Source: Pseudomonadota bacterium | Lineage (GTDB): Bacteria > Chloroflexota > UBA6077 > JAJPHF01 | Direction: 5' to 3' | Length of the DNA: 42,181 bases | NCBI GenBank assembly: GCA_021325365.1 | Contig: JAJPHF010000084.1 | Coordinates: forward strand, 1-42,181 | In this document: piece after piece, positions 13,729-37,329 of the stretch | Layout of the letters: every line of letters starts with the position of its first letter | How positions within the stretch are numbered: position 1 is the stretch's first letter | Notes under the pieces: generated by a model | The model's database searches: none | Told to the model about the DNA's origin: nothing | What the model saw: only the letters and a program-made list of their open reading frames with translations | Translations under genes and position numbers: made by a program

Positions 13729-13791
13729 GGCCTTACCCCCAGATCGCGTCCCGGGCAGCCGTCCGCCCGCAAATCGTCGCATGCTGTCCGC

Positions 13792-13820
13792 ATCCTACGT
13801 CTGCACCGCGCGGCTGTCAA
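13792..13820 (-). promoter_or_regulatory. Sigma-70-like promoter for lipoprotein gene no. 1
   Basis: On the minus strand a perfect -35 TTGACA (13820-13815), a 17-base spacer, then -10 TAGGAT (13797-13792). Transcription would start near 13785, giving a leader of about 57 bases. Confidence 0.62.
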
Positions 13821-13836
13821 GGAATGGCGCTTGACA
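13815..13836. promoter_or_regulatory. Inverted repeat joining two divergent -35 boxes (operator candidate)
   Basis: TGTCAAG (13815-13821) and CTTGACA (13830-13836) form a perfect 7-base dyad with an 8-base spacer. Each arm contains TTGACA, the -35 box for one of the two divergent lipoprotein genes. A dimeric regulator bound here would block or control both promoters at once. Confidence 0.55.
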
Positions 13837-13859
13837 ACGCGGCGCCCCGCTGCCATCGT
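13831..13859 (+). promoter_or_regulatory. Candidate promoter for lipoprotein gene no. 2
   Basis: Perfect -35 TTGACA (13831-13836), 17-base spacer, and a weak -10 CATCGT (13854-13859) that keeps only the second, third and last consensus bases. The leader would be about 45 bases. Confidence 0.4.
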
Positions 13860-13910
13860 AGGGACGCGGCGGGGCGCCGCGGCAGCGGCCACGACGCGAG
13901 GAGGAGCGCC

Positions 13911-14975
13911 ATGAAGCGCGCGTCGATCATCCCCCGGGCCGGCCTGCTGCTGGCGGCGCTGCTGGTCGCCGGCGCCTGCGGCTCGCCCGCGCCGCCCGCC
14001 GCCGCGCCCGCCCCGCCGGGCGGCCCCGCCGCCGCGTCGCCCGGCGTTAGCGCTCCCAGCGGGGCGAGCGCGGCCAACCCGGCGACGCGCCAGCACGTCC
14101 GCGTCTCCTACGGCGCCCCCGTGGGCTCGATGGCGCCCATCGTGGCCGCTAACAAGCTGGACGAGTGGGCGAGCGCGGGCCTCGACGTGGACGTGCAGCG
14201 GATTCCCTCCAACACCTCCGTCGCGGCGCTCGTCGCGGGCGAGCTGGACCTGGTGCAGGTCTCCGCGCCGGCGCTCATCTCCGCCGACGTCGGCGGCGGC
14301 GCGGACCTCGTGTTCATCGCCGGCGCGCTCGACCGCTTCATCCTGGGCGTCTGGGCCATGCCCGGCATCAACACCGCCGACGACCTGCGCGGCAAGACGA
14401 TCGGCTCCGACCGGCCGGGCACGCCGGTGGCCTACGCCACCGACGTGACGCTCGCGCGCCTGGGCCTGAGCCACAGCGACGTGCAGATCCTGCCGCTCGG
14501 CACGGACGGCATGATCCCTGGCCTGGAATCCGGGCAGCTGCAGGCCGCGTCGATGACCCTGCCGCAGATCATCCCGGCGCAGCGCATGGGCGCACACCTG
14601 ATGGTCAACCTGTACGATCTGACCTATCAGAACATCGGCCTGATCATGCGGCGCGGCGACATGGACCGGCTCGCGCCAGCCCTGCCCGGGCTGCTGCGCG
14701 TCTACCGTCAGGGCATCGAGCGCTTCCTCCAGGACGAGCGCTGGGGCAAGGAGGTCCTAACCGACTTGCTGGACACCACCGACGAGGACCAGATCGACCA
14801 GACCTACGACTTCTTCACCAAGACGGTCCCCTTCACGCCCAGCCTGCGCGTCTCGCGCGACGGGCTGCAAGCGGTGGTCGACTCGCTGAAGGACACCCTG
14901 CCCGGCGCCGCGACCGCGAACATCGACAGCTTCTACGACCACCGCTTCGTGGACCAGCTCGACGCCGCGCGCTAA
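13911..14975 (+). CDS. ABC-type substrate-binding lipoprotein (NMT1/TauA-like), no. 2
   Basis: A 354-residue exported lipoprotein. Signal peptide with lipobox V19-A-G-A-C23, an Ala/Pro/Ser linker to about residue 58, then the binding domain. Landmarks: SYGAPVGSMAPIVAANKLDEW near 66-86, LVAGELDLVQVSAPAL, TADDLRGKTIGSDRPGTPVAYATDV in the middle, and a helical C-terminus. It differs clearly from lipoprotein no. 1, so the divergent pair is not a recent duplication. ATG at 13911 with GAGGAGGAG about 5 bases upstream. No permease or ATPase gene follows; the next gene is convergent (mtnB), separated by a large palindrome. Ligand unknown; aromatic acids or sulfonates are guesses from context. Confidence 0.86.
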   Translation: MKRASIIPRAGLLLAALLVAGACGSPAPPAAAPAPPGGPAAASPGVSAPSGASAANPATRQHVRVSYGAPVGSMAPIVAANKLDEWASAGLDVDVQRIPSNTSVAALVAGELDLVQVSAPALISADVGGGADLVFIAGALDRFILGVWAMPGINTADDLRGKTIGSDRPGTPVAYATDVTLARLGLSHSDVQILPLGTDGMIPGLESGQLQAASMTLPQIIPAQRMGAHLMVNLYDLTYQNIGLIMRRGDMDRLAPALPGLLRVYRQGIERFLQDERWGKEVLTDLLDTTDEDQIDQTYDFFTKTVPFTPSLRVSRDGLQAVVDSLKDTLPGAATANIDSFYDHRFVDQLDAAR

Positions 14976-21899: not shown

Positions 21900-21941
21900 G
21901 GGCGCTACTTGCTGCGCCGGACGCCCGCCCCTGGCCGTCGA

Positions 21942-21971
21942 TTGGTCCGCGGCGGGGTCTACTTCTATACT
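21942..21971 (+). promoter_or_regulatory. Promoter for the HpaB-LigA-LigB-like genes
   Basis: -35 TTGGTC (21942-21947), 18-base spacer, -10 TATACT (21966-21971, 5 of 6). The start would be near 21979, giving a leader of about 56 bases to the hydroxylase ATG. Confidence 0.45.
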
Positions 21972-22034
21972 GGGGAACACACGCGGCGCGGGGGCCGGCG
22001 AGCGGCCCAGGCGGCGGGGACAGGGGGCGACGGC

Positions 22035-23531
22035 ATGGGCGTGCGGACAGGCGCCGAGTTCCTGGCGGGGCTGCGCGACGAGCGCGAGGTGTGGCTGGAC
22101 GGCGAGCGCGTCGCCGACGTGACGGCGCACCCGCTGCTCGGCCGCTGCGCGCGCTCGGTGGCCGAGCTGTACGACCTCCAGCACGATCCCGTCATCGGCC
22201 CGCGCCTGACCTACCGCTCGCCCAGCACCGGCGATCCCGTGAGCCTCGCGTTCGTCGAGCCGCGGAGCGTGGACGACCTCGTGCGGCGGCGCGCGATGTT
22301 CAAGGCCTGGGCCGACCACTCGGGCGGCATGCTGGGCCGCAGCCCCGACTACATGAACACAATCCTGGCGGGCTGCGCGATGGCCGCCGACTACTTCCGC
22401 CGCGGCGGCGCCGAGTACGGCGAGCGCATCGTCGCCTACTACGAGTGGTTTCGCGAGCGCGACCTGTGCGCCACCCACACGTTCGGCACCTTCCGCGCGA
22501 ACCGCGTGCGCACCGAGGCGCAGCAGGACGACCCGACCGTGCCGCTCCACATCGTCGGCGAGAGCGCCGAGGGACTGGTCGTCAGCGGCGCCCGCAACAT
22601 GGCGACGCTCGGGCCGTTCGCCGACGAGATGCTGGTGTTCCCGGCGCCCATGCGGCAGCAGGGCGGCGACGCCGATCGCTACGCGCTGGCCTTCGCCGTG
22701 CCGATCGCCACGCCCGGCATGCGGCTGATGTGCCGCCAAAGCCTCGACATGGGGCGTCCCGTGGCCGAGCAGCCCCTGGCCGCCCGCTACGAAGAGATGG
22801 ACTGCGTGGTGATCTTCCACGAGGTCGTGGTGCCGTGGGAGCGCGTGTTCATCAAGGGCGACGTGGAGCTGTGCAACGGGCTGTTCAGCCAGACGCGTGC
22901 ATTCGACCACGGCATCCACCAGTTCCTGGTGAAGGACTGGGTGAAGGCCGAGTTCATCCTGGGCGTCGCGGCGCTGCTGGCCGAGGCCATCGGGCGCACG
23001 GAAGTGCCGACGTACCAGATGATGCTGGGCGAGATCGTGGATGCGGTGGAGACGCTGCGCGCCTACGTCTTGGCAGCCGAGGCCGACGCGGTCGCGGACG
23101 CGGCGGGCTACTACGTGCCGAACCCGTCCATCCTGACGACCGGCCGCAACTACCTGCGCCGCCTGTACCCGCGTCTGATCGAGATCCTGCAGCTTATCGG
23201 CTCCAGCGGGCTGATGGCGACGCCGACCGAGGCCGACCTGGCGGCGCCCGAGCTGGCCGCCGACATCGAGAAGTACTACCAGTCCACGAACCTGGGCGGG
23301 CACGACCGCGTGCGGCTGTTCCGACTGGCCTGGGACCTCGCGTGCAGCGGCTTCGCAGGGCGCCAAGTGCTGTACGAGCGCTTCTTCGCGGGCGACCCGG
23401 CGACCTTGCTGGCGCGGCGCTTCTTCACCTACGACCGCACTGCCGCCGTCGCCCGCGTACAGGCGCTCCTCGCCGCAACGGCGGCCGAGGCTGGGACGCC
23501 CGCGGGGGCTGGCGCGGCGAGCGACTCGTAG
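22035..23531 (+). CDS. 4-hydroxyphenylacetate 3-hydroxylase (HpaB) family oxygenase
   Basis: A 498-residue flavin-dependent monooxygenase of the HpaB family, which uses FADH2 and oxygen to hydroxylate phenols ortho to the OH group. Family blocks: RTGAEFLAGLRDEREVWLDG at the N-terminus, LTYRSPSTGDP, RNMATLGPFADEMLV, the region around EEMDCVVIFHEVVVPWERVF, ILQLIGSSGLMATPT and a C-terminal DRVRLFRLAWDLACSGFAGRQ. Length fits the family (about 480-520). ATG at 22035 has AGGGGGCGAC upstream and precedes the conserved N-terminus. The required flavin reductase (HpaC) is not in the window. Two ring-cleavage subunit genes follow on the same strand, so it probably makes the catechol they cleave. Other family members act on chlorophenols or 4-hydroxybutyryl-CoA; the lack of Fe-S cysteines excludes the latter. 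Confidence 0.88.
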   Translation: MGVRTGAEFLAGLRDEREVWLDGERVADVTAHPLLGRCARSVAELYDLQHDPVIGPRLTYRSPSTGDPVSLAFVEPRSVDDLVRRRAMFKAWADHSGGMLGRSPDYMNTILAGCAMAADYFRRGGAEYGERIVAYYEWFRERDLCATHTFGTFRANRVRTEAQQDDPTVPLHIVGESAEGLVVSGARNMATLGPFADEMLVFPAPMRQQGGDADRYALAFAVPIATPGMRLMCRQSLDMGRPVAEQPLAARYEEMDCVVIFHEVVVPWERVFIKGDVELCNGLFSQTRAFDHGIHQFLVKDWVKAEFILGVAALLAEAIGRTEVPTYQMMLGEIVDAVETLRAYVLAAEADAVADAAGYYVPNPSILTTGRNYLRRLYPRLIEILQLIGSSGLMATPTEADLAAPELAADIEKYYQSTNLGGHDRVRLFRLAWDLACSGFAGRQVLYERFFAGDPATLLARRFFTYDRTAAVARVQALLAATAAEAGTPAGAGAASDS

Positions 23532-24064: not shown

Positions 24065-24871
24065 ATGGGTGAGGTGGTCGCCGCCATCCTGTGCAGCCAC
24101 GCGCCGGGCATCACCGCGTTTCCCGCGCCGGAGGAGCAGAAGGCCGCGGTCTGGGGCGGCTTCGCGCGGGCCCGCGAGGTGCTGGAGGCGGCGCGGCCCG
24201 ACGTGATCCTGGCCGCGAGCTGCGAGCACTTCGTGAACTTCTTTCTCGACAACTTCCCGGCCTTCTGCATCGGCACCGGCGCGAGCCACAAGGGGCCTGT
24301 CGAGCCAAACCTGAACATCCCGCAGGGCGAGGTGCCGGGGCACCCCGAGTTCGCGCGAGCGGTGCTGGAGACAGCCTTCGACGGCGGCGTGGAGCCAGCC
24401 TGGTCGGAACGCATGCTGCTCGACCACGCGACCTCACTGCCGCTCCACTTCCTCAACCCGGAGCGGAACATCCCCGTCGTGCCGCTGCTGCAGAACTGTC
24501 TGGTGCCGCCGCTGCCCGCGCTGCCGCGCTGCTACCGGCTGGGCCAGCTGATCCGCGAGGCCGTCGAGGCCTGGCCGGGACGGGTGGCGCTGCTCGGCAC
24601 CGGCGGGCTGTCGCACAGCCCGGGGGCGCCCGAGGCGGGCTACATCGACGAGGCGTTCGACCACGAGTTCCTGGCGCTGCTCGAGCAGGGCGACGGCGAG
24701 GCCATCGCGGCGATCCCCGACGAGCGCATCGACCGCGCGGGCTTCGGCACCTGGGAGATTCGCCAGTGGGTGACGGTGCTGGGCGCGGTGCCCGAGCGGA
24801 AGGGGCGGGTGCTCGTCTACGAGCCGGTGAAGCAGTGGTTTACCGGCTGCGCCGTGGCGGTGCTAGAGTAG
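24065..24871 (+). CDS. LigB-like catalytic subunit of extradiol ring-cleavage dioxygenase
   Basis: A 268-residue class III (LigB-type) extradiol dioxygenase, which opens catecholic rings using non-heme Fe(II) and oxygen. H12 (CSHAPG) and H55 (SCEHFVNFF) are the likely iron histidines, matching LigB H12 and H61; E231 in TWEIRQW is the likely third ligand. H184 in GTGGLSHSPG matches the acid-base histidine. ATG at 24065 with GATAGGAG about 6 bases upstream. It follows the LigA-like gene. Substrates of this family include protocatechuate, gallate, 3-O-methylgallate and 2,3-dihydroxyphenylpropionate, and the sequence alone does not choose. Converges on the histidine kinase gene. Confidence 0.88.
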   Translation: MGEVVAAILCSHAPGITAFPAPEEQKAAVWGGFARAREVLEAARPDVILAASCEHFVNFFLDNFPAFCIGTGASHKGPVEPNLNIPQGEVPGHPEFARAVLETAFDGGVEPAWSERMLLDHATSLPLHFLNPERNIPVVPLLQNCLVPPLPALPRCYRLGQLIREAVEAWPGRVALLGTGGLSHSPGAPEAGYIDEAFDHEFLALLEQGDGEAIAAIPDERIDRAGFGTWEIRQWVTVLGAVPERKGRVLVYEPVKQWFTGCAVAVLE

Positions 24872-26783: not shown

Positions 26784-27854
26784 CTATAAGCCGTAGAGGG
26801 CGCGGGCGTTGGCGTCGGTGATCTTGGCATAGGCGCGCTCGTCCAGGCCGCCGCTCTCACGCAGGTTGCGAAGGGCCTCGATCTCGGTCGACTGGTCCTG
26901 GTGGCCGTAATCGGTGCCGATCACCAGGTTGTCCTCACCGGCGTAGCCCAGCAAGTACGGCACGTCGTCGTCGGTCTGGCACGAGACGTACAGCCGGTAC
27001 TCCTTGAGCGGGTTGTCGGGCAGGGTGCGGCCCTGGGCGGGCAGGCGGCGCCTGAGATCCTTCAGCACGTAGGGCAGCCACTGAGAGGAGGCTTCGAGGA
27101 ATCCCATTCGGAGCTTGGGGAATCGCTCCATGAGCCCGTTCATGATGACGGAGTGGAAGGCGCCCACCGAGGCCAGGCGGAACTTCCAGAAAGTGCCGCC
27201 GCCGTTGCGCTGGGAGAGCAGGTCGATCAGCCAGGGGGTGCCGTTGGCGATGTGGACGCCAATCGCCATGTCGAGGGCCTGGGCGCGCTCGTAGATCGGA
27301 TCGAAGTGCGGGTCGTGGAGCAGGCGGCCGTTCTCGATGCTGCGCATGTACACCGCGCACGCGCCGTTGCGGCGGCCGAACTCGATCTGGGCGACCGCCT
27401 CCTCTGGCGCCTCCGTGGGCACGACGCACGCCCAGCGCAGGCGGTTGTGGCTCTGGCTCCAGATGTCGGCCAGCCAGCGGTTGTACGATTTACACAGCGC
27501 GATCTCCACCTCAGCCTTGTCGGCGACTTGCTCGATGAAGATCGTCGGGTAGAGCACCTGCACGTCGATGCCCAGCTCGTCCATGTGGTGCAGGCGCGCC
27601 GGCACGTTCTCGGCCTCGCGCGTCTCGGCGGGCGTCTCCATGCGGCGGCCGGCGCGGCCTTCCAGCTCGGCGAACTGTTGCGCCGTGATGACGGAGCGCA
27701 CGAAGCCGCGAATCTTGCCGTCGATCAACCAGTAGGCGACGCCGCTGCCCTCGGGATGGACGATCTGCGGCCGGTAGGCGCGGTCGGCCGGGTCCAGATA
27801 CTCCCAGGTGCGGTCCGACTCGACGACGTGCGCGTCGGCGTCGATGGTGGCCAT
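26784..27854 (-). CDS. Amidohydrolase family 2 (ACMSD-type) protein, probable decarboxylase or hydrolase
   Basis: A 356-residue TIM-barrel metal enzyme of the amidohydrolase-2 group. The N-terminal metal motif is D7-A-H9-V-V-E12. Further expected blocks are ARLHHMDELGIDVQVLYPT, VGVHIANG-like (MAIGVHIANGTP, metal His), FPKLRMGFLEASSQWLPYVL (conserved Glu/Trp region) and the terminal GTDYGHQD where the family has GSDxPH. Relatives include ACMS decarboxylase, gamma-resorcylate and 5-carboxyvanillate decarboxylases, and various lactonases. ATG at 27854 has GGGGGTAAA about 9 bases ahead; two upstream ATGs are less likely. It lies 153 bases behind the MetE-like pair on the same strand. With the Rieske and LigAB-like genes, decarboxylation of an aromatic carboxylate is a fair guess. 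Confidence 0.85.
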   Translation of the reverse strand: MATIDADAHVVESDRTWEYLDPADRAYRPQIVHPEGSGVAYWLIDGKIRGFVRSVITAQQFAELEGRAGRRMETPAETREAENVPARLHHMDELGIDVQVLYPTIFIEQVADKAEVEIALCKSYNRWLADIWSQSHNRLRWACVVPTEAPEEAVAQIEFGRRNGACAVYMRSIENGRLLHDPHFDPIYERAQALDMAIGVHIANGTPWLIDLLSQRNGGGTFWKFRLASVGAFHSVIMNGLMERFPKLRMGFLEASSQWLPYVLKDLRRRLPAQGRTLPDNPLKEYRLYVSCQTDDDVPYLLGYAGEDNLVIGTDYGHQDQSTEIEALRNLRESGGLDERAYAKITDANARALYGL

Positions 27855-28007
27855 CGCATTTACCCCCGGCACGGGTCTGAAGCGGTGTGAAACGGTAGCC
27901 TCTGCCATAGCATACCCAGTGTGGCGCACGGATGGCCACACCTGGCCCTCCGTCCTCGGTGCCCGGCGGCCCAGCCGGGGCGCACGCGCCAGGGCCGCAC
28001 GGCCAGG

Positions 28008-29033
28008 CTACACGCCTAGCTCCTGGCGCACCAGCTCGGCGCCGAGGACGAGCGCGCGCAGCTTGGCGTAGGCGACCGGACGGGGCAGGTGCCACATGCC
28101 GCAGTCGGGGGAGATGTGCAGGCGCGCGGGCGGCACGACGGCGAGGGCCGCGCGTGCCAATGCGGCGACGGCCGCCGGGCGCTCCGGCGCCGCGTTGGCC
28201 AGGTCGAGCACGCCCAGGATGACGCCTTTGTCGCCGCAGTGGTGCAGCAGGTCCGGGTGGTGGCCCGGCTGCGCGTACTCCAGCGAGATCCAGTCGACGC
28301 GCGGGTGGGCGGCGAGCGTCGCCAGCGCGGCGGCATAGGCGGGGTCGGCCTGCTTGCTCGGGTAGCGGTAAGCGTAGCCGTAGCAGACGTGAACGGCGAC
28401 GGGCGTGGTGAGCCCGTCCAGCGCCCAGGTCAGCGCCTGCTCGGCGTGGGCGCGCAGCGGCCCCGGGTTGATGTAGAGCACCGGCTCGTCGAGCTGCAGC
28501 AGGTCGCAGCCCTCGGCCTCCAGCGCCCGCAGCTCGGCGTTGATCACGGCGGCGCAGGCGTGGACCAGCGCCTCCTGGTCGCGGTAGTGCTCGTCCGCGA
28601 GGCGCGCGGCGGCCGTGAGCGGGCCGACCACGGTCATTTTCACGGGCCGGCCGGTCAAGCGCTTGAGGGCGCGGAGGTCGTCCAGCACGCGCGGGCCGGG
28701 CCAGGCGAGCGGGCCGACGACGCGCGGGTAGCGCGCGGTGCCGCCGCGCGGATTGGCGACCTCGACCAGGCGCTCCGCGTCCACGCCCTGCCAGGCGCTG
28801 GTAAAGTGGCGCGCGAAGTTCAGGCGCCGGCCCTCGCCGTCGGCCAGCAGGTCGAGGCCGGCGCGCTCCTGGTCGTAGACCGCGAGGCGCACCGTGTCGT
28901 CTTGCGCCTCGGCGAGCACTTCCGGCGGCGCGGCCCAGCGCTCGCCGCCGAGGGTGCCCTTGTCGAGCAGCCAGGCGGGCTTCGTGTAGCTGCCGACAAG
29001 CTGCGTCGCCAGCGGCCGCGGCCAGCGCGTCAT
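28008..29033 (-). CDS. Short MetE-like methyltransferase (methionine synthase II family), copy 1
   Basis: A 341-residue protein covering only the C-terminal catalytic barrel of cobalamin-independent methionine synthase; the full enzyme is about 750 residues. The zinc ligands that activate the thiol acceptor are all kept: H215 and C217 in VAVHVCYGY, E252 in WISLEYAQPG and C311 in ISPDCGMWHLP. Acceptor-side motifs include GSYTKPAWL at the N-terminus, LLADGEGRR near 62-70, and LLQLDEPVLY near 178-187. Full MetE moves a methyl group from methyltetrahydrofolate to homocysteine; short homologues use other donors or are unassigned. ATG at 29033 overlaps the stop of copy 2 (ATGA), so the pair is translationally coupled, probably forming a heteromer or acting in sequence. 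Confidence 0.85.
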   Translation of the reverse strand: MTRWPRPLATQLVGSYTKPAWLLDKGTLGGERWAAPPEVLAEAQDDTVRLAVYDQERAGLDLLADGEGRRLNFARHFTSAWQGVDAERLVEVANPRGGTARYPRVVGPLAWPGPRVLDDLRALKRLTGRPVKMTVVGPLTAAARLADEHYRDQEALVHACAAVINAELRALEAEGCDLLQLDEPVLYINPGPLRAHAEQALTWALDGLTTPVAVHVCYGYAYRYPSKQADPAYAAALATLAAHPRVDWISLEYAQPGHHPDLLHHCGDKGVILGVLDLANAAPERPAAVAALARAALAVVPPARLHISPDCGMWHLPRPVAYAKLRALVLGAELVRQELGV

Positions 29034-30136
29034 AGCGCGTCACCCCAGACCTGGCGCGCGGTCTGGGCGACCAGCTCCAGCTTGCGCCACTGCTCGTCGG
29101 GCGTCAGCAGGTTGCCGGCGGCGGTCGAGGCGAAGCCGCACTGGGGGCTGAGTGCCAGGTCGTCGAGCGGGACGTAACGCGCGGCCTGGTCGATGCGGCG
29201 GCGGAGCGCGTCGGGCGGCTCCAGCGCGGGGTCTTTCGTCGTCACGAGGCCGAGAACGACCGTCTTGCCGCGCGGCACGAAGCGGAGCGGGCCGAAGTCG
29301 CCGGCGCGCGGGCTGTCGTACTCCAGCAGGAAGGCGTCGACGGGCAGCATGCCAAACAGCTTCTCGGCGATCTGATCGTAGCCGCCCTCGGCGATCCAGC
29401 GGCTGCGCGAATTGCCACGGCAGAGGTGGACGGCCAAGACCATGCCGGGCCGCGCGAGGTCGGCCAGGCAGGCGGTGTCGGCGGCCAGGGCGTCGTCGAA
29501 CGCCTGGTCGGGATCGAGGCCGACCTGACGCAGACGGTCGCGCATGGCGGGGTCGGCGTAGTAGGTGTAGAACGGTGCGTCCAGCTGGACGTAGGGGACG
29601 CCCAGCTCGACCAGCCCCTGCACCTCGCGGCGGATGAGCGCGGTGAAGTCGGCGAGCAGCTCGGCGCGCGTGGGGTAGGCCCGGTCGGTCACGCCGGGCT
29701 TGTAGGCGACGGCGGCCAACTGGGATGGCATGGGCACCGCGACCTTGTACGGGCCGCCGGCGTGATCGCGCAGGAAGGTGGCCTCGTGCTGGACAAGCGG
29801 CCGGCGCGGGCGCAGCCGGCCGCCGACCACGGGTGCAACGCTGCCCTCGGCGCCGCCGCCTGGCCCGTGCCACTCCAGCACGACCCGCTCGGCGACGAAG
29901 CCCTCGACCGCGTCGTGGATGTCGGTCAGGAAGGCGCCGCGGCGGAACTCGCCGTCGGTCAGCACGTCGATGCCCGTCGCCCGCTGGCGCGCCAGCGCGT
30001 CCAGGATGAGGCGGTCCTCGACGGCGCGCAGCTCGTCGGCGGGCAGGCGGCCCTCCGCGGCAGCCGCGCGCGCCGCCAGCAGCTCCGGCGGGCGCAGCAG
30101 GCTGCCGATCTGGTCGGCGCGGTAGCGGGCGGGCAC
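29030..30136 (-). CDS. Short MetE-like methyltransferase (methionine synthase II family), copy 2
   Basis: A 368-residue catalytic-barrel-only MetE homologue. Zinc ligands are again complete: H237 and C239 in LAVHLCRGN, E272 in FLLEYDSP and C333 in LSPQCGFAS. Other family blocks are DQIGSLLRPPELL at the N-terminus, VLTDGEFRRGAF near 58-69 and YVQLDAPFYTYY near 182-193. It differs widely from copy 1, so this is an old pair rather than a recent duplication. GTG at 30136 has AAAGGAAA about 4 bases upstream and lies 8 bases after the Rieske stop, so it is cotranscribed with the oxygenase. Its stop overlaps the start of copy 1 by 4 bases. A methyl-transfer step linked to the Rieske reaction is an inference from this arrangement. 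Confidence 0.86.
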   Translation of the reverse strand: MPARYRADQIGSLLRPPELLAARAAAAEGRLPADELRAVEDRLILDALARQRATGIDVLTDGEFRRGAFLTDIHDAVEGFVAERVVLEWHGPGGGAEGSVAPVVGGRLRPRRPLVQHEATFLRDHAGGPYKVAVPMPSQLAAVAYKPGVTDRAYPTRAELLADFTALIRREVQGLVELGVPYVQLDAPFYTYYADPAMRDRLRQVGLDPDQAFDDALAADTACLADLARPGMVLAVHLCRGNSRSRWIAEGGYDQIAEKLFGMLPVDAFLLEYDSPRAGDFGPLRFVPRGKTVVLGLVTTKDPALEPPDALRRRIDQAARYVPLDDLALSPQCGFASTAAGNLLTPDEQWRKLELVAQTARQVWGDAL

Positions 30137-30144
30137 GTTTTCCT

Positions 30145-31350
30145 TTAGCCGCCGACGCCGGCCGGCTGGAGGGCGTTCTTGTACCACTCCTGGCCGATGT
30201 CGCGGCGACCGAAGGCGTCGTACTGGCTGCCGCGGGCGATCGTGATCATCGGCTCGTTGCGCGCCGGGTCGCGGATCACGCCCATCGGGTCCTCGCCCCG
30301 CTCGACCTTCTCCAGGTTCTCCAGCAGCAGCTTGCGATACAGCAGGATGCCCTTGTCGGAGGTGGCGAGATGCTCCGTGGTGCGGTCGGTGATGGCGCCC
30401 TGGCCGACCCAGGCCATCTCGTCCTGCCAGGGGATGTTGCTGCCCACGCCGTCGTGGTCCACGTAGGCCCGCCCGAACTGGTCGTAGGTCAGGGGCTCGT
30501 GGCGGAAGACGGTGCGGCTGGGCCGGTCCTCGCCGTGGCGCTTGCCGCTGATGACGATGTGCAGCGTGTGGGTGTCGTCGCGCGGGATGCGGAGCTGGCT
30601 GGAGGTCTGGTCCGCGCCGCCCTGGGCCAGGATGTTCGGGAACAGGATCGGGTGGCCGATGGTCCAGTCGGTGCAGTCCTCCGGCTCGCCCTCGACCAGG
30701 CGCCGCTTGTAGATGCCGTACTCGAACACGTCGAAGGCGATCTTCAGGTGGCGGGCCGGCTTGAGCGGCCACGGCTTGCCGCGGCGCTTCATGAAGTAGC
30801 CGCCGTACGCGCCGTGCAGGTGCTCGAAGTGGATCGGGTCGAGCGAGTTGTCCATGCACTGCAGCCAGTTGCAGGGCAGCTCGCTGACCATGATGTCGCG
30901 GTCCAGGTCGTCGCGCATGAGGAAGTCCCACTTGGGGAGGAGGGGCGCTGGCTGCGGGCCGAAGTAGGCGAACACCAGGCCGGCGAGCTCCTGCACAGGG
31001 TAGGCCGTAAGCTTGAGCTGCATGCAGGCCGGCTCGAAGGGCATCTCGACGACGCGGCCCTCGGCGTTGTACACCCAGCCGTGGTAGGCACAGCGCAGGC
31101 CGTTCTCCTGGGGGATGCCGTAGGCCATGGAGATGCCACGATGGGCGCAGCGCGAGCCGATGAGCCCGAACTGGCCGTTCTCCATGCGGAAGAGCGTCAG
31201 GTCCTCGCCCAGGATGCGCACCGGCTGGACCGGCTCGGCCTCGAGATCGGCGACGACGCCGACGGCGTGCCAGTAGCGCCGCAGCAGGTTGCCCATCGGC
31301 GTGCCGGGCCCCACCTGGGTGAGTCGCTCGTTCTGCTCCTTGGTGATCAT
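30145..31350 (-). CDS. Rieske non-heme iron oxygenase, phthalate 4,5-dioxygenase type (copy A)
   Basis: A 401-residue alpha subunit of a ring-hydroxylating or demethylating oxygenase. The Rieske cluster ligands are C68-x-H70 and C87-x2-H90. The mononuclear iron site is in NSLDPIHFEHLH, with D171, H174 and H179; the third iron ligand lies further on and was not fixed. Overall order and length match the phthalate 4,5-dioxygenase/vanillate demethylase class, which needs only an alpha subunit plus a reductase. No reductase gene is in the window. ATG at 31350 with GGAGGAG about 6 bases upstream. Behind it, 8 bases away, come the two MetE-like genes; 172 bases ahead lies a Pht4-like dehydrogenase. 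A paralogue is at 34536-35879. Substrate undetermined; carboxylated or methoxylated aromatics are likely. Confidence 0.9.
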   Translation of the reverse strand: MITKEQNERLTQVGPGTPMGNLLRRYWHAVGVVADLEAEPVQPVRILGEDLTLFRMENGQFGLIGSRCAHRGISMAYGIPQENGLRCAYHGWVYNAEGRVVEMPFEPACMQLKLTAYPVQELAGLVFAYFGPQPAPLLPKWDFLMRDDLDRDIMVSELPCNWLQCMDNSLDPIHFEHLHGAYGGYFMKRRGKPWPLKPARHLKIAFDVFEYGIYKRRLVEGEPEDCTDWTIGHPILFPNILAQGGADQTSSQLRIPRDDTHTLHIVISGKRHGEDRPSRTVFRHEPLTYDQFGRAYVDHDGVGSNIPWQDEMAWVGQGAITDRTTEHLATSDKGILLYRKLLLENLEKVERGEDPMGVIRDPARNEPMITIARGSQYDAFGRRDIGQEWYKNALQPAGVGG

Positions 31351-31522: not shown

Positions 31523-32809
31523 TCAGCGGTCCGTTGGCTCCTCGTGTACCACGGGCGTCGGGCACTGGTGCGTCAGCAGGATCTCGCGGCGCTCGCGAGC
31601 CGACTCCAGCATGGCCAGGCACACTTCGAGCGTCGCCAGGCCCCAGCGGCCGTCATGCGAGATCGGCACGCCCCGCGTTAGCGCCGCGTGCAGCTCCTGT
31701 AGCTCGATGATACCCGCCGCGCCGCTGCCCTGCACAGGCACCTCGTGGTGGCCGTCGTCGTCGTAGACGAGAATGCCCTGAGGCGATTGGCGCAGGGTGC
31801 CGCGCTCGCAGCTCGCGAGCAGGATGCCGAACCAGTTGCCCCCGCCCGCCACGTCGCGCCGACCCGCCGTGTAATCGCGGCCGCCGCGGGTTGTCTCGCG
31901 TAGCTGCTCCTTCGCCGCGGCGTCGTCGGCGCGGCCGGCGCGGAAGGCGCGGCGCGCCTGCACGGCCTGCTCCTCGGTGTACAGGCGGTCGCCAATGCCC
32001 CACACCAGGTCGGCGGTGTTGAAGTAGCCGTAGCCGCTGTAGGAGATCGTCGCCGGCGTGCCATCCGCGAACTCCAGGTAGGCCGAGACGTTGCCGGGCG
32101 CGGGGCGCTCGGGCATCCAGGCGCCGACCATCGCCCGCACGCTGCGGACCAGGCCGCCGCCGAGGGTGCGGATCGAGTCCACGATATGGGGCAGGTGGCG
32201 GTACACCACGCCGCCGCCAAGCGTGACGTCCAGCTCTTGCGGCAGGCGCGGCTTGAGCAGCCAGTCGGAGTACATCCAGTGGGCCACCTGGATCAGGCGG
32301 CCGAGCGACCCGCCCTGCACGAGGCGGTGCATCGCCTGGATGGAGGGGTTCAGGCTGTAGGTGTGGCCGCAGAGCAGGTAGACGCCGTGCTGCTCGGCGG
32401 CCTCCACCATCTGCTCGGCCTCGGCGACACTCAGGGCCATCGGCTTCTCGCAGACGACGTGCTTGCCGTGGCTGGCGGCCAGGACGACGTGCTCGCGGTG
32501 GAACTGGTTGGGCGTGGCGACCCAGACCACGTCCACCTCGGGGTCGGCGCAGAGCGCGGCCACGGAGTCGTAGACGCGGCCGCCGTGGCGCGCGGCGAAC
32601 TGGGCGCGTGCCTCGGGTCGCGTGTCGGCGGCAGCGACCAGCTCCGTGATCGGCATCCGCTCGATGGAGGGGATCACCATCGCGCTGCCGACGCCGAGGC
32701 CGGCGATGCCGACGCGCAGGGTGCGCTCGGCGCGGGCGGTCCCCTGGCTCTCGGGTGCGGCGCTGGTCACGGCAGCCTCCGTCGTCTGCGGCTTGCTGGC
32801 TGAGGTCAT
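31523..32809 (-). CDS. Gfo/Idh/MocA oxidoreductase, phthalate cis-dihydrodiol dehydrogenase (Pht4)-like (copy A)
   Basis: A 428-residue NAD(P)-dependent dehydrogenase. The Rossmann domain starts at about 31 (LRVGIAGLGVGSAMVIP) and includes VDVVWVATPNQFHREH and the catalytic EKP motif (HVVCEKPMAL). The C-terminal domain carries YSDWLLKPRLPQELD, GGGVVYRHLPHIVDS and ISYSGYGYFNTADL, all typical of the Pht4 group that oxidises phthalate cis-4,5-dihydrodiol. Compared with copy B (36199) it has a 30-residue N-terminal extension and a longer middle. ATG at 32809 lacks a clear ribosome site; a later start near the Rossmann strand is possible. It precedes Rieske copy A on the same strand, consistent with successive steps. 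The catalytic motif is EKP here and SKP in copy B. Confidence 0.85.
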   Translation of the reverse strand: MTSASKPQTTEAAVTSAAPESQGTARAERTLRVGIAGLGVGSAMVIPSIERMPITELVAAADTRPEARAQFAARHGGRVYDSVAALCADPEVDVVWVATPNQFHREHVVLAASHGKHVVCEKPMALSVAEAEQMVEAAEQHGVYLLCGHTYSLNPSIQAMHRLVQGGSLGRLIQVAHWMYSDWLLKPRLPQELDVTLGGGVVYRHLPHIVDSIRTLGGGLVRSVRAMVGAWMPERPAPGNVSAYLEFADGTPATISYSGYGYFNTADLVWGIGDRLYTEEQAVQARRAFRAGRADDAAAKEQLRETTRGGRDYTAGRRDVAGGGNWFGILLASCERGTLRQSPQGILVYDDDGHHEVPVQGSGAAGIIELQELHAALTRGVPISHDGRWGLATLEVCLAMLESARERREILLTHQCPTPVVHEEPTDR

Positions 32810-33035
32810 GGTACTGCATTGGGGGGCCAATGCCCCACTCGGCCGGCGAGCGCCAGCGCGCGGCAGCGGGCGGCCAGCAGCCAGCGGCAAGTGTTACCGA
32901 TATCATGCGCTATCTGTTACAACGGTCGCAGACCCGTTCGCCCCGCGCTCCTACCATCGATCTAGCAGGACGGCGGTGCTGGCACAGGGTCCGGGCGGCC
33001 GTCCAGGCAGCGATATCAGTGAAGAGGAGGTCGCC

Positions 33036-34535: not shown

Positions 34536-35879
34536 TCACCGCACGGCCGCGGCAGCCGCCGCGGCCGCCGCGTCGTCCGCAGCCTGCACGGCGGCGGCGT
34601 CCGACGGGCGGGCCACGCCGCGACTGGAGAGGATGGGGCTGTACTTGGTGGCGGCACCCTGGCGACTGCGGCTGCCGGCGAAGCGCTGGCCGCCGGCGCG
34701 CTCGGTGCGCATCGAGAGGTAGACGTTCGCGGCCGGGTCACGGAAGACGTTCAGCGGGTCCTCGCCCTGCTCGACGCGGCGGATGTTCTCCTCGAGCATC
34801 TGACGGAAAAGGATGATGCCCTTGTCCGAGCGGCCCAGGTGCTCGCCCGTGCGGTCGGCGACGGCGCCCTGCGTGATCCAGGCGGCCATGTCCTGCGCCG
34901 AGTTGCTGTCCAGCAACTCCCACTGGGGCTGCTCCTCGGCGTCCAGCGAGGGGACGGGCACCCGGTAGAAGGGGATGTCCTCGGGCTGCTGGTCGGGGTC
35001 GGCGGCTTGCTTCGGGTAGCAGGCCACCCACCAGTGGGCGGTGTGCGTGTCGTCGAGGGGCACACGGATCTGGAAGGCGGGGCCGAGGTTGCCGAACAGG
35101 CCGGGGGTGCCGTCGCCGCTACCGCCCTGGCGCAGCATGTTCGGGAAGACGATCGGGTGCCCATCCTTCCAGGGCGTGTCCTCCTCGGTGCCGCCCTCGA
35201 CCACGCGGCGCTTCACGATGCCGTACTCGAACACGTCGAAGCCGATCTTCTGGTGGCGCTTCGGCGGCACCCACAGCTCCGGCTTGCCGAGCATCGCCGC
35301 GACGTGGTTCCCCCAGAAGCTGTGCAGCCACTCGACGTGCACCGGGTCGAGCGAGTTCTCCTGGCACTGCAGCCAGTTACACGGCAGCACGCCGTAGCCG
35401 ATGTCGCGCACGTAGCCGTCGATACAGTACACGTCCCAGCGCGGCAGCAGCGGCGCGGGCGCGGGGCCGAGATAGGCAAACAGCAGGCCGGCTAGCTGCT
35501 GGACGGGATAGGCCTTGATGCAGATCTTGTCCTTGAAGCGGCTCTCGGGGTCCTCGGCCTCCTCGTAGGGCTGCTCCAGGCACTGCCCGGTCTCGGCGAA
35601 GAGCCAGCCGTGGTAGGCGCAGCGGAGGCCGCGCGCCTCGGGGATGCCGTAGATCAGGTTCATGCGGCGGTGGGGGCACAGCGGCTCGACGAGGCCGTAG
35701 GCGCCGCCTTTGTCCCGATAGAGGATGAGGTCTTCGCCGAGGAGCCGGACCTTGAGCGTGTACTTGTCCTGCATCTGGGAGACGGCGGCGACCGGGTGCC
35801 AGTAGCGGCGCATCAGCTCGCCGCACGGCGTGCCGGGTCCGACGCGCGTATACCGCTCGTTCTCCTCCTGGGTCAGCAT
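34536..35879 (-). CDS. Rieske non-heme iron oxygenase, phthalate 4,5-dioxygenase type (copy B)
   Basis: A 447-residue oxygenase alpha subunit, paralogous to copy A: both begin with a QEENER/KEQNER-type start and share GPGTP, RRYWH, the Rieske ligands C68-x-H70 and C87-x2-H90, and an iron motif, here NSLDPVHVEWLH with D178, H181 and H186. The C-terminus is extended by about 45 residues, ending in a run of Ala encoded by GCN repeats. ATG at 35879 has GGGAGG 6 bases upstream. A well-formed promoter lies 60-95 bases upstream. The gene diverges from the Pht4-like dehydrogenase at 36199. Reductase component absent. Expected substrate class as for copy A, with different specificity. Confidence 0.9.
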   Translation of the reverse strand: MLTQEENERYTRVGPGTPCGELMRRYWHPVAAVSQMQDKYTLKVRLLGEDLILYRDKGGAYGLVEPLCPHRRMNLIYGIPEARGLRCAYHGWLFAETGQCLEQPYEEAEDPESRFKDKICIKAYPVQQLAGLLFAYLGPAPAPLLPRWDVYCIDGYVRDIGYGVLPCNWLQCQENSLDPVHVEWLHSFWGNHVAAMLGKPELWVPPKRHQKIGFDVFEYGIVKRRVVEGGTEEDTPWKDGHPIVFPNMLRQGGSGDGTPGLFGNLGPAFQIRVPLDDTHTAHWWVACYPKQAADPDQQPEDIPFYRVPVPSLDAEEQPQWELLDSNSAQDMAAWITQGAVADRTGEHLGRSDKGIILFRQMLEENIRRVEQGEDPLNVFRDPAANVYLSMRTERAGGQRFAGSRSRQGAATKYSPILSSRGVARPSDAAAVQAADDAAAAAAAAAVR

Positions 35880-36198
35880 GCCGGCCTCCCTTCGCCGCCG
35901 CGCGGACGTGTCGCTGCTTGGCTGCCAGCGGTCTTCGCGGGCTGAGGATACCAGCGGCGGCACGCGCCGTCAAACGGGCCTCGCTGGTACGGGCGAGACG
36001 GCTGCCGCATAATGGCGGGCCGTGGGTGATGTAAACGGAGGGCGAACCAGTGAACGCGCAAGCCGCAGGTTTGGTAGGGCGCAGTCTTGTGCCCCGCCGC
36101 GCGGTGACGCCCACGCCAGCCGGACGGCAGGCGACAGGCCCGTGCTCTACGTCGCGCGGGCCGGATGTGGCGCCATCCGGCGAGATGGGGGCTCGGTC
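35880..36198. other. Divergent intergenic region between Rieske copy B and Pht4-like copy B
   Basis: 319 bases without a gene. It holds the minus-strand promoter listed separately and, on the plus strand, a CATAAT hexamer at 36008-36013 with a poor -35, a possible promoter for the dehydrogenase. Confidence 0.5.
35945..35973 (-). promoter_or_regulatory. Sigma-70-like promoter for Rieske copy B
   Basis: Minus strand -35 TTGACG (35973-35968, 5 of 6), 17-base spacer, -10 TATCCT (35950-35945, 4 of 6). Predicted start near 35938, giving a leader of about 59 bases. Confidence 0.55.
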
Positions 36199-37329
36199 AT
36201 GAGCGAGCCCAGGCCGCTGCGGCTGGGGCTGGCGGGGCTGGGGGTGGGCGCGAGCCAGCTGCTGCCGGCGATGACGACGGGGCCGCACGTGCGGCTGACG
36301 GCGGTGGGCGACGTGCGCCAGACGGCGCTCGACCAGGCGGCGGCCGAGTACGGCATCGCGACGCACCGCTCGATCGAGGAGCTGTGCCGCGATCCGAACG
36401 TCGATGTCGTCTGGGTCGCCACGCCGAGCCACCTGCACGCCGAGCACGCCATCCTGGCCGCCGAGGGCGGCAAGCACGTCATCGTCTCGAAGCCGCTGGC
36501 GATCACGCTGGACGAGGCCGAGGCGATGAACGCGGCGGCCGAGCGGAACGGCGTGCTGCTGCTCGCCGGCCACACGCAGAGCATGGCGCCGGCCGTCCGC
36601 AAGCTGGCCGACCTGGCGCGCGGCGGCGTGTTCGGGCGGCTGGGGATGATCCACACCTGGCACTACACCGACTGGATGTACCGCCCGCGGCTGCCGGAGG
36701 AGTTGGACTCGGCGCGGGGCGGCGGGCCGGTGTTCCGCCAGGCCTCGCACCAGGTCGATATCGTGCGGCTGATCGGCGGCGGGCTGGTGCGCAGCGTGCG
36801 CGCCATGACCGTGCAGCTCGACGCCGAGCGCGGGGCGCCCGGCAGCTACACCGTGTACCTGGAGTTCGCGGACGGCACACCCGCGACGATCGTGTACAGC
36901 GGCTACGGGCACTTCGAGACGGGCGAGCTGACGGGCAAGCGGTCGATGGCCGAGCGCGTCCCCGAGGCGATGGCGGGCGCGGACGAGCGGGCGCAGAAGG
37001 AGGCGCTACGGTCGGCGCGGCGCGGGCAGGAGCAGTCGCTAGGCCAGTTCGGCCTCACCATCGTGACCTGCGAGCGCGCCGACCTGCGCGAGTCGCCCGA
37101 CGGCCTGTGGGTGTACGAGCGCGGCGGGCGCCGAGAGATTCCCGTGCCGCGCGAGCTGCGGGGCGCGGCCGAGCTGGAGGAGATGTACCAGGCGGTCGTC
37201 CACGGCCGCCCGCTCTCGCACGACGGCCGCTGGGGCCTGGCCACGCTCGAAGTGTGCCTGGCCATCCACGAGTCGGCGCGCACGCGTCAAGAGGTCGTCC
37301 TCTCCCAGCAAACCGCCAGCCCGAACTGA
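36199..37329 (+). CDS. Gfo/Idh/MocA oxidoreductase, phthalate cis-dihydrodiol dehydrogenase (Pht4)-like (copy B)
   Basis: A 376-residue NAD(P)-dependent dehydrogenase. The Rossmann strand LRLGLAGLGVGASQLLPAM opens the protein; VDVVWVATPSHLHAEH and the catalytic segment HVIVSKPLAI follow, where SKP replaces the usual EKP. The C-terminal part has HYTDWMYRPRLPEELDSA, ASHQVDIVRLIGGGLVRSVR and IVYSGYGHFETGEL, a close match to the Pht4 group. The C-terminal segment SHDGRWGLATLEVCLA is shared with copy A. ATG at 36199; GGGGG lies about 8 bases upstream, and longer frames add an unlikely Arg-rich leader. It diverges from Rieske copy B. Likely step: oxidation of the cis-dihydrodiol made by that oxygenase. 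Confidence 0.86.
   Translation: MSEPRPLRLGLAGLGVGASQLLPAMTTGPHVRLTAVGDVRQTALDQAAAEYGIATHRSIEELCRDPNVDVVWVATPSHLHAEHAILAAEGGKHVIVSKPLAITLDEAEAMNAAAERNGVLLLAGHTQSMAPAVRKLADLARGGVFGRLGMIHTWHYTDWMYRPRLPEELDSARGGGPVFRQASHQVDIVRLIGGGLVRSVRAMTVQLDAERGAPGSYTVYLEFADGTPATIVYSGYGHFETGELTGKRSMAERVPEAMAGADERAQKEALRSARRGQEQSLGQFGLTIVTCERADLRESPDGLWVYERGGRREIPVPRELRGAAELEEMYQAVVHGRPLSHDGRWGLATLEVCLAIHESARTRQEVVLSQQTASPN

What the first reader, a model, noticed from the sequence alone, without database searches (positions are those of the whole stretch)
28008..31350. Two short zinc-site-complete MetE homologues translated directly behind a Rieske oxygenase
A Rieske alpha subunit, then two different catalytic-barrel-only MetE-like proteins, lie in one transcript with 8-base and -4-base spacing. 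Both MetE-like proteins keep all four zinc ligands (H215/C217/E252/C311 and H237/C239/E272/C333) yet lack the N-terminal half of MetE. Tight coupling to an oxygenase suggests a methyl or one-carbon transfer step in aromatic breakdown (for instance O-demethylation with a thiol or folate acceptor) rather than methionine synthesis. I know of no described pathway with this arrangement.
Basis: partly seen in the sequence, partly recalled or inferred. Interest (0 to 1): 0.75.

Follow-up and report, generated by a model that had tools for sequence, protein, structure and literature searches.

The report
Paired MetE barrels in aromatic cluster
In a Chloroflexota genome, two single-barrel cousins of methionine synthase sit in one tightly packed operon behind a ring-attacking oxygenase, and some relatives elsewhere lie beside ring-opening enzymes, which hints that such proteins move methyl groups during breakdown of aromatics rather than simply making methionine.

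Summary
A LigX/phthalate-dioxygenase-type Rieske protein is followed by MetE-A (368 aa, 8-base gap) and MetE-B (341 aa, 4-base overlap). Both are single MetE barrels with all zinc ligands and the three homocysteine-binding residues; both lack MetE's N-terminal barrel and the folate residues checked. They belong to two distant branches: A PRK06520-like, B MesD-like without MesX.

The Rieske link is weak. None of 80 MetE-A loci has a same-strand Rieske within 3 kb (46 have 3 kb on both sides), 1 of 30 Rieske loci has a MetE, and the nearest genomes carry up to 125 Rieske matches.

Two things recur: tandem MetE genes (13 genomes plus the window) and ring-opening neighbours. LigB + citryl-CoA lyase + CoA-transferase lie beside MetE-B in five Chloroflexota and form an operon with it on an Aminobacter plasmid. 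The window itself carries LigB, HpaB and two phthalate-dihydrodiol-dehydrogenase-like proteins.

Best reading: folate-independent, homocysteine-using methyltransferases serving aromatic catabolism, methyl donor unknown. The aromatic setting is supported; a folate partner is not.

The parts
30145..31350 (-). Rieske oxygenase alpha subunit, LigX / phthalate 4,5-dioxygenase type (401 aa)
   Evidence: PF00355 58.8 bits, PF19301 LigXa_C 47.5 bits; best solved relative 7fhr 'Putative Phthalate 4,5-dioxygenase, subunit alpha' 171 bits; the sequence shows CAH-X16-CAYH and DPIHFEHLH
30137..30144 (-). 8-base gap between Rieske stop and MetE-A GTG, holding AGGA
   Evidence: read directly
29030..30136 (-). 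MetE-A: single zinc/homocysteine MetE barrel, PRK06520-like branch (368 aa)
   Evidence: PF01717; NF005085 281.5 bits, below its cut-off 313; PDB 1ypx 226 bits; S12/E63/D186 + H237/C239/E272/C333
29030..29033 (-). 4-base ATGA stop/start overlap coupling MetE-A to MetE-B
   Evidence: read directly
28008..29033 (-). MetE-B: single zinc/homocysteine MetE barrel, MesD-like branch without MesX (341 aa)
   Evidence: PF01717; NF006589 204 bits, below its cut-off 392; PDB 3rpd 164 bits; S15/E67/D182 + H215/C217/E252/C311
31523..32890 (-). Gfo/Idh/MocA dehydrogenase upstream of the Rieske gene, relative of 4,5-dihydroxyphthalate dehydrogenase
   Evidence: PF01408; 7wzd 267 bits over 4-389 of 392 residues
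26784..27941 (-). Amidohydro_2 protein downstream of MetE-B
   Evidence: PF04909 76.7 bits; weak PDB relatives include ACMSD 45 bits and 5-carboxyvanillate decarboxylase 37 bits
24065..24871 (+). LigB-type extradiol ring-opening dioxygenase, 3.1 kb from MetE-B on the other strand
   Evidence: PF02900 138.5 bits; NF009901 class III extradiol dioxygenase family 144 bits, below cut-off 290
21909..23531 (+). HpaB-type aromatic hydroxylase (4-hydroxyphenylacetate 3-monooxygenase)
   Evidence: TIGR02309 496 bits, above cut-off 480
34536..35963 (-). second LigX-type Rieske oxygenase
   Evidence: PF00355 63.8 and PF19301 55.3 bits
36022..37329 (+). second 4,5-dihydroxyphthalate-dehydrogenase-like Gfo/Idh, divergent from the second Rieske
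   Evidence: PF01408; 7wzd 240 bits

Best explanation
MetE-A and MetE-B are two folate-independent zinc/homocysteine barrels that act as a pair in an aromatic-catabolic operon. The Rieske dioxygenase and its Gfo/Idh partner oxidise and re-aromatise an aromatic (probably carboxylated) ring; ring opening (LigB type) and decarboxylation (Amidohydro_2) follow or run in parallel. The MetE pair strips a methyl group from a pathway intermediate and puts it on zinc-bound homocysteine, giving methionine instead of formaldehyde or methanol. Shown: zinc and homocysteine residues intact in both barrels, N-terminal barrel and folate residues absent, aromatic genes around, recurrent MetE-MetE pairing. Inferred: homocysteine is the thiol, the barrels work together, the donor is a pathway intermediate. 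A chemically attractive guess, from precedent and not from these data, is the methyl ester left after extradiol cleavage of a methoxy-catechol such as 3-O-methylgallate.
For: Seven catalytic columns S-E-D-H-C-E-C in 215 of 229 family members, both window proteins included. Folate residues DMV, Trp539, Glu583 (T. maritima numbering, passages of PMC539065) present in both full-length MetE references and in neither window protein. LigB is one of the two commonest Pfam families among same-strand neighbours of MetE-A relatives (5 of 116, level with nitroreductase), in genomes with 1, 2, 5, 9 and 13 LigB matches. LigB within 5 kb of MetE-B relatives in 5 of 20 regions, 0.19 expected, each time behind a CoA-transferase and citryl-CoA lyase; the same four genes form an operon on Aminobacter pUSP2. 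Three Pseudomonadota have profile matches to the two CoA enzymes, a VOC-superfamily protein and a tandem MetE pair in one region. The window carries LigB and HpaB. Tandem MetE genes in 13 genomes plus the window. In G087 the order A then B recurs, with an AMP-binding ligase overlapping the MetE-A start by ATGA. MetH domain in 8 of 12 relatives.
Against: No substrate, donor or product is shown. Most same-strand neighbours of MetE-A relatives are not aromatic enzymes: 141 families were matched among 116 proteins, none in more than 5. The five LigB/MetE-B Chloroflexota loci may be one inherited event, and in three of the five MetE-B is on the opposite strand. In the window LigB is on the other strand, 3.1 kb away, with a histidine kinase, a small ORF and the amidohydrolase between. 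The LigB excess around MetE in the window's own order is marginal (3 of 43, 0.83 expected, P 0.05). 49 of 131 A-branch proteins have Glu in the column of folate-binding Glu583, though the window's has Asp and the loop alignment is uncertain. The Rieske + Gfo/Idh pair points to dihydroxylation, which needs no methyl transfer. Aryl methyl ethers are poor donors to a zinc thiolate (general chemistry).
Confidence: 0.43

Rival explanations
1. Chance neighbours: the Rieske gene and the MetE pair came together in a genome saturated with Rieske genes, and the MetE pair has nothing to do with the Rieske step.
For: The two nearest genomes hold 125 Rieske matches in 4.4 Mb and 92 in 3.5 Mb. In 37 MetE-centred regions of that order, 2 have a same-strand Rieske within 1.5 kb, 0.78 expected, P 0.19. 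0 of 80 MetE-A loci have a same-strand Rieske within 3 kb; 1 of 30 Rieske-centred loci has a MetE. The 64% relative in G087 has an AMP-binding ligase where the window has the Rieske.
Against: 8-base gap and 4-base overlap; Rieske and MetE-A homologues on contigs of identical length in two further assemblies (52,664 and 45,552 bases); Gfo/Idh, Rieske, MetE in the same order and strand in G159, with a 600-base gap.
Confidence: 0.28
2. Accessory methionine synthases: like MesD they make methionine aerobically from an unidentified donor, with the oxygenase or another redox enzyme in the oxygen-dependent role of MesX. Their place in an aromatic operon is a regulatory convenience.
For: Hcy and zinc residues as in MetE/MesD; MetE-B groups with MesD in the tree (31-leaf clade, support 0.81) and hits 3rpd; MesD needs O2 and MesX but not methyl-folate or B12 (PMC7857596, results and discussion section read in full); 4 of 12 relatives show no MetH match.
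Against: No MesX profile match in the window or in 10 loci with close relatives of the Aminobacter MetE-B, against 17 of 20 loci with the weaker, MesD-like hits. Relatives carry up to 13 PF01717 matches. MetH domain in 8 of 12.
Confidence: 0.2
3. Thiol-conjugating enzymes: like epoxyalkane:coenzyme M transferase, a MetE-barrel enzyme of alkene-oxygenase operons (recalled), they add a thiol to an electrophile made by the Rieske or ring-opening enzyme, with no methyl transfer.
For: Alkene-oxidising operons with such a transferase are known (recalled; one paper seen as a search listing only, PMC11507031).
Against: [quoted passage not shown] No epoxyalkane transferase sequence was compared (one search found no record).
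Confidence: 0.09

Closest known systems
MesD/MesX (folate-independent methionine synthase; PMC7857596)
   Same: MetE-B: single barrel, same zinc and homocysteine residues, best PDB relative 3rpd, same tree clade
   Different: 36% identity to a Klebsiella MesD beside DUF1852, NF006589 score below cut-off, no MesX in the window, coupled to a second MetE barrel
Cobalamin-independent methionine synthase II family (PRK06520; PDB 1ypx; YxjG/YxjH is a recalled label)
   Same: MetE-A: full-length single barrel, same residues, 47.6% identity to the best match in the plasmid collection
   Different: NF005085 somewhat below cut-off (281.5 of 313); its nearest GTDB relatives are mostly Chloroflexota and Acidobacteria; I found no established function for the parent family (one search, listing only)
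Full-length MetE and split MetE
   Same: Two MetE barrels encoded next to each other, as in split MetE or the duplication proposed for MetE (PMC539065, passages)
   Different: Both window barrels keep zinc and homocysteine residues and lack the folate residues checked. A pair with one dead barrel (NLDYYDC + SEDHCEC) was seen in G005
Aromatic O-demethylation: VanAB and LigX (Rieske), LigM/DesA (tetrahydrofolate), DesC/DesD (methyl ester hydrolysis)
   Same: Setting: LigX-type Rieske, LigB and Amidohydro_2 proteins in the same window
   Different: As described in passages of PMC12314914 these use oxygenase, folate or esterase chemistry; that none uses a MetE barrel is my recall
Phthalate 4,5-dioxygenase and 4,5-dihydrodiol dehydrogenase
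   Same: Rieske (7fhr, 171 bits) and Gfo/Idh (7wzd, 267 bits) resemble this pair and are neighbours
   Different: MetE pair and amidohydrolase are extra; no reductase gene was noticed among the ORFs scanned; substrate unknown

Membership tests
Full-length MetE | N-terminal barrel fused to the catalytic barrel | tested here: not met
   341 and 368 aa, only PF01717 above cut-off
Full-length MetE | zinc ligands His-Cys-Glu-Cys and homocysteine residues Ser, Glu, Asp | tested here: met
Full-length MetE | folate residues DMV, Trp539, Glu583 in the C-terminal barrel | tested here: not met
   present in 2 of 2 MetE references; window A has A-F-L, V, D and window B has N-F-A, gap, gap in those columns
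MesD | single barrel with zinc/Hcy residues | tested here: met
   MetE-B
MesD | high identity to characterised MesD (about 55% or more in PMC7857596) | tested here: not met
   36% to a Klebsiella MesD next to DUF1852; NF006589 204 of 392 bits
MesD | MesX (DUF1852) neighbour | tested here: not met
   no match in the window to a one-sequence MesX profile
MesD | oxygen-dependent methionine synthesis | not testable with these tools
   needs complementation
PRK06520-type MetE II family | score above the NF005085 cut-off (313 bits) | tested here: inconclusive
   MetE-A 281.5 bits over 3-364 of 368
Split MetE | one catalytic barrel and a partner barrel without zinc site, folate residues kept | tested here: not met
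   both window barrels complete, folate residues absent
LigX / phthalate-dioxygenase-type Rieske oxygenase | Rieske domain plus LigXa-type C-terminal domain | tested here: met
   PF00355 58.8, PF19301 47.5 bits
LigX / phthalate-dioxygenase-type Rieske oxygenase | reaction: O-demethylation or cis-dihydroxylation | not testable with these tools
   neighbouring Gfo/Idh favours dihydroxylation, inference only
Epoxyalkane:coenzyme M transferase | sequence similarity and coenzyme M site | not tested
   no reference sequence obtained

The most novel reading that the evidence does not exclude
A further kind of aerobic aromatic demethylation: two coupled zinc/homocysteine MetE barrels take a methyl group from a methoxy-aromatic or its ring-opened methyl ester and bank it as methionine, without folate, cobalamin or formaldehyde. 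The many MetE paralogues of these lineages would then be a family of substrate-specific demethylases whose members are swapped behind different ring-attacking or ring-activating enzymes.
Probability: 0.2. Interest if true: 0.85.

Novelty: new variant of a known kind. Interest (0 to 1): 0.56.

Why it matters
Core MetE proteins are commonly annotated as methionine synthases. If lineages of them travel with ring-opening dioxygenases, citryl-CoA lyase and CoA-transferases, as in the Chloroflexota and Pseudomonadota cases seen here, many such labels may be wrong, and an unrecognised methyl-handling step may exist in aromatic breakdown. There is a ready test system: the Aminobacter sp. MSH1 pUSP2 operon, on an annotated plasmid of a named strain, whereas no genome is held here for the window's own organism. 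The tandem pairs with both barrels intact also resemble the state proposed to have preceded the fused double-barrel MetE.

Tried and rejected
1. Conservation of the Rieske-MetE-MetE order in GTDB genomes. Only 46 of the 80 have 3 kb on both sides and 60 have 3 kb upstream; same-strand Rieske matches lie further off in L016 (3.2 kb), L019 (3.5 kb) and L061 (4.5 kb). Of 30 Rieske-centred loci of 4.2 kb or less, from 10 genomes, 1 has a MetE. The profile was built from the window Rieske's homologues and can miss distant Rieske proteins.

2. A statistical case for Rieske-MetE neighbours in the window's order. A first count (3 seen, 0.82 expected) mixed MetE genes that were not in the denominator; recounted on the 37 fetched MetE-centred regions it is 2 against 0.78, P 0.19. 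I therefore raised the odds of the chance rival slightly.

3. Finding the window's own genome or close kin: none held; the nearest order of 16 held genomes has MetE-A only up to 64%.

4. Split MetE: rejected, both barrels keep zinc and Hcy residues.

5. MesD membership of MetE-B: rejected on identity and missing MesX.

6. Comparison with epoxyalkane:CoM transferase: no record found; left untested.

7. Literature: no paper in the searched open-licence library held 'MetE-like', 'Rieske' and 'cobalamin-independent methionine synthase' together, and none held three of 'citryl-CoA lyase', 'extradiol dioxygenase', 'gallate', 'methionine synthase'. Other searches. PMC12478193 was seen as abstract and outline only; PMC10418091 and PMC7005905 as passages. 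The Aminobacter genome paper (PMC8460812, passages) has no occurrence of extradiol, gallate or methionine synthase in its main text.

8. Structural comparison of the models: fold search not available.

Rows dropped: MetE hits of 850 bases or less, with internal X, or identical to another were left out, and the 240 P-proteins were subsampled. For one search, 116 of the 128 neighbours listed were given; for, 53 of 56.
Full report
WHAT IS THERE. On the minus strand: Gfo/Idh dehydrogenase 31523-32890; Rieske 30145-31350; MetE-A 29030-30136 (GTG, preceded by AGGA in the 8-base gap); MetE-B 28008-29033 (ATGA overlap); Amidohydro_2 26784-27941 (66 or more bases further on). Only Rieske, MetE-A and MetE-B are tightly coupled; the Gfo/Idh gene ends 172 bases before the Rieske start.

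THE TWO MetE PROTEINS. They belong to two distant branches. In a tree of 229 proteins A falls with a Klebsiella 'methionine synthase II family' protein (106-leaf clade, support 1.0) and B with a Klebsiella MesD (31-leaf clade, support 0.81), 4.4 substitutions per site from each other. By profile A is closest to PRK06520 (281.5 bits, cut-off 313) and PDB 1ypx, B to PRK09121 (204 bits, cut-off 392) and PDB 3rpd. PMC7857596 (results and discussion section read in full) gives the zinc ligands of MetE, its homocysteine-binding Ser433, Glu484, Asp599 and the matching residues of 3rpd. In one alignment the seven positions of A and B fall in the same columns, and 215 of 229 proteins read S-E-D-H-C-E-C. 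Homocysteine is therefore the most likely zinc-bound acceptor (inference). PMC539065 (passages) says that the main folate determinants of MetE lie in the catalytic barrel; three of those it names, DMV, Trp539 and Glu583, are present in both full-length MetE references and in neither window protein, and the N-terminal barrel is missing. One caution: 49 of 131 A-branch proteins align Glu with Glu583 (the window's has Asp), in a loop that aligns poorly. A folate partner is thus disfavoured, not excluded. AlphaFold models are confident, mean pLDDT 85.6 (A) and 89.0 (B), with alternating strands and helices and a long beta hairpin near residues 77-110.

IS THE RIESKE LINK REAL? For: the very tight spacing, and Rieske and MetE-A homologues whose longest contigs have identical lengths in two other cases, P0242 (96%) with P0006 (87%) at 52,664 bases and P0245 (81%) with P0011 (84%) at 45,552 bases. 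That indicates shared contigs, not adjacency. In the nearest held order, G159 has Gfo/Idh (in two frames), Rieske, a 600-base gap and a MetE of another subfamily on one strand (L281); G052 has a Rieske then MetE-B (L215); G159 also has MetE, MetE, an ORF and a Rieske (L207). Against: none of 80 MetE-A loci has a same-strand Rieske within 3 kb (46 have 3 kb on both sides), and 1 of 30 Rieske-centred loci has a MetE. Rieske matches number 125 in 4.4 Mb and 92 in 3.5 Mb in the two genomes with the closest Rieske relatives. In 37 MetE-centred regions of this order 2 have a same-strand Rieske within 1.5 kb, 0.78 expected, P 0.19, so there is no excess. SAR202 group VII is known for such expansions (PMC6946804, passages). 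The Rieske's best solved relative is annotated as phthalate 4,5-dioxygenase (7fhr) and it has a LigX-type C-terminal domain; its upstream Gfo/Idh neighbour resembles 4,5-dihydroxyphthalate dehydrogenase (7wzd, 267 bits). The window holds a second Rieske with a second such dehydrogenase (34536-37329), and 5 of 30 Rieske-centred loci also match this Gfo/Idh type. So the Rieske most likely dihydroxylates a ring with the dehydrogenase as partner (inference) and need not be a demethylase.

WHAT RECURS: MetE PAIRS. Same-strand MetE neighbours within 1.5 kb occur in 7 of 80 MetE-A loci and, over the loci fetched, pairs less than 400 bases apart in 13 genomes plus the window (these loci were fetched for their MetE genes, so 13 is not a frequency). 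In 11 of the 13 at least one pair has all four zinc ligands in both members; in L044 the second protein lacks the last one in the stretch aligned, and in G005 the first member has lost the site and looks like a split MetE. The closest held relative of MetE-A (64%, G087) has MetE-A then a MetE-B-like gene in the window's order, with an AMP-binding ligase in the Rieske's place that overlaps the MetE-A ATG by four bases (L185). Three Pseudomonadota have pairs spaced about -10 to +1 bases from the end of the first gene to the profile start of the second.

WHAT RECURS: RING OPENING. Of 116 same-strand neighbours of MetE-A relatives, LigB (PF02900) and nitroreductase are the commonest families, 5 each, among 141 families. 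The LigB cases are L006 (Chloroflexi, the only LigB match in its genome), L017 (Acidobacteria, 2), L078 (Alphaproteobacteria, 9), G008 (Chloroflexota, 13) and G159 (order of G052, 5). In six genomes of the window's order 3 of 43 PF01717 matches have LigB within 5 kb, 0.83 expected, P 0.05. For MetE-B relatives LigB lies within 5 kb in 5 of 20 regions, 0.19 expected, P about 2e-6; the five may share one ancestor, so this P overstates the case. In all five, LigB follows a CoA-transferase III and a citryl-CoA lyase on one strand (L232, L234, L235, L238, L245); MetE-B lies 0.4 to 3 kb further on, on the opposite strand in three of them. The same four genes form a one-strand operon on Aminobacter sp. 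MSH1 plasmid pUSP2, where the MetE-B gene is labelled 'uroporphyrinogen decarboxylase family'. In three more Pseudomonadota (L283-L285) profile matches to both CoA enzymes lie with a tandem MetE pair and a VOC-superfamily protein (within about 3 kb in two, about 7 kb in L285; Pfam confirmed the two CoA enzymes for L284 only). MesD-like genes look different: 17 of 20 such loci have MesX next door, against 0 of 10 loci with close relatives of the Aminobacter protein. In the window LigB (24065-24871) and HpaB (21909-23531) lie on the plus strand, 3.1 and 4.5 kb from MetE-B.

HOW IT MAY WORK. Shown: two barrels with intact zinc/Hcy residues, no recognisable folate site, aromatic neighbourhood. Inferred: the pair moves a methyl from a catabolic intermediate to homocysteine. 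Known aerobic routes named in passages of PMC12314914 are Rieske demethylation to formaldehyde, tetrahydrofolate-dependent LigM/DesA, and esterase cleavage of a ring-opened methyl ester. A methyl ester formed by ring opening is a better donor to a zinc thiolate than an aryl ether, which would explain the LigB association; this is a guess. Relatives often have MetH (8 of 12), so methionine synthesis alone does not require these genes there.

VERDICT. New variant of a known kind.

Noticed in passing
L002:429-7643 (Chloroflexi MAG B28T3L11): Array of MetE-like genes in a 7.6-kb contig: two on the minus strand, then on the plus strand a B type and A-type stretches (two whole, the last in two frames at the contig end); L079 (Rhizobiales) has four A-type genes in a row.
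   Followed up: partly
genomes G052 and G070 (Chloroflexota, order nearest to the window): 125 and 92 Rieske-domain matches in 4.4 and 3.5 Mb, the highest of the eight genomes searched.
   Followed up: partly
L228:6248-11891 (Aminobacter sp. MSH1 pUSP2): Operon of CocE hydrolase, MetE-B relative (labelled uroporphyrinogen decarboxylase family), citryl-CoA lyase, CoA-transferase and extradiol dioxygenase behind a TRAP transporter; the KU Leuven substrain lacks pUSP2.
   Followed up: yes
L089 (G005:C53): Tandem MetE barrels of which the first has lost the zinc and Hcy residues (NLDYYDC), like a split MetE in a Dehalococcoidia MAG.
   Followed up: no
window:34536-37329: Second LigX-type Rieske divergent from a second 4,5-dihydroxyphthalate-dehydrogenase-like Gfo/Idh.
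   Followed up: partly
window:37364-41017 and 12667-14975: Gluconate-2-dehydrogenase-subunit-3-like and GMC oxidoreductase pair, and three NMT1/THI5-like proteins.
   Followed up: no
window:41057-42181: Luciferase-like monooxygenase closest to SfnG (165 bits, cut-off 383), cut by the window end.
   Followed up: no
window:18744-20768: 674-aa ORF whose C-terminal part matches adenosine deaminase (97.6 bits, residues 382-617), with about 380 residues ahead of it without a Pfam match.
   Followed up: no
window:17240-18181: Class II aldolase-family protein whose best NCBIfam match is 3,4-dihydroxyphthalate decarboxylase PhtC (103.5 bits, below its cut-off 200).
   Followed up: no
MetE-A branch, residue K301 of the window protein: Lys in 129 of 131 A-branch proteins at the column of MetE's conserved His672, a suggested proton donor.
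   Followed up: no
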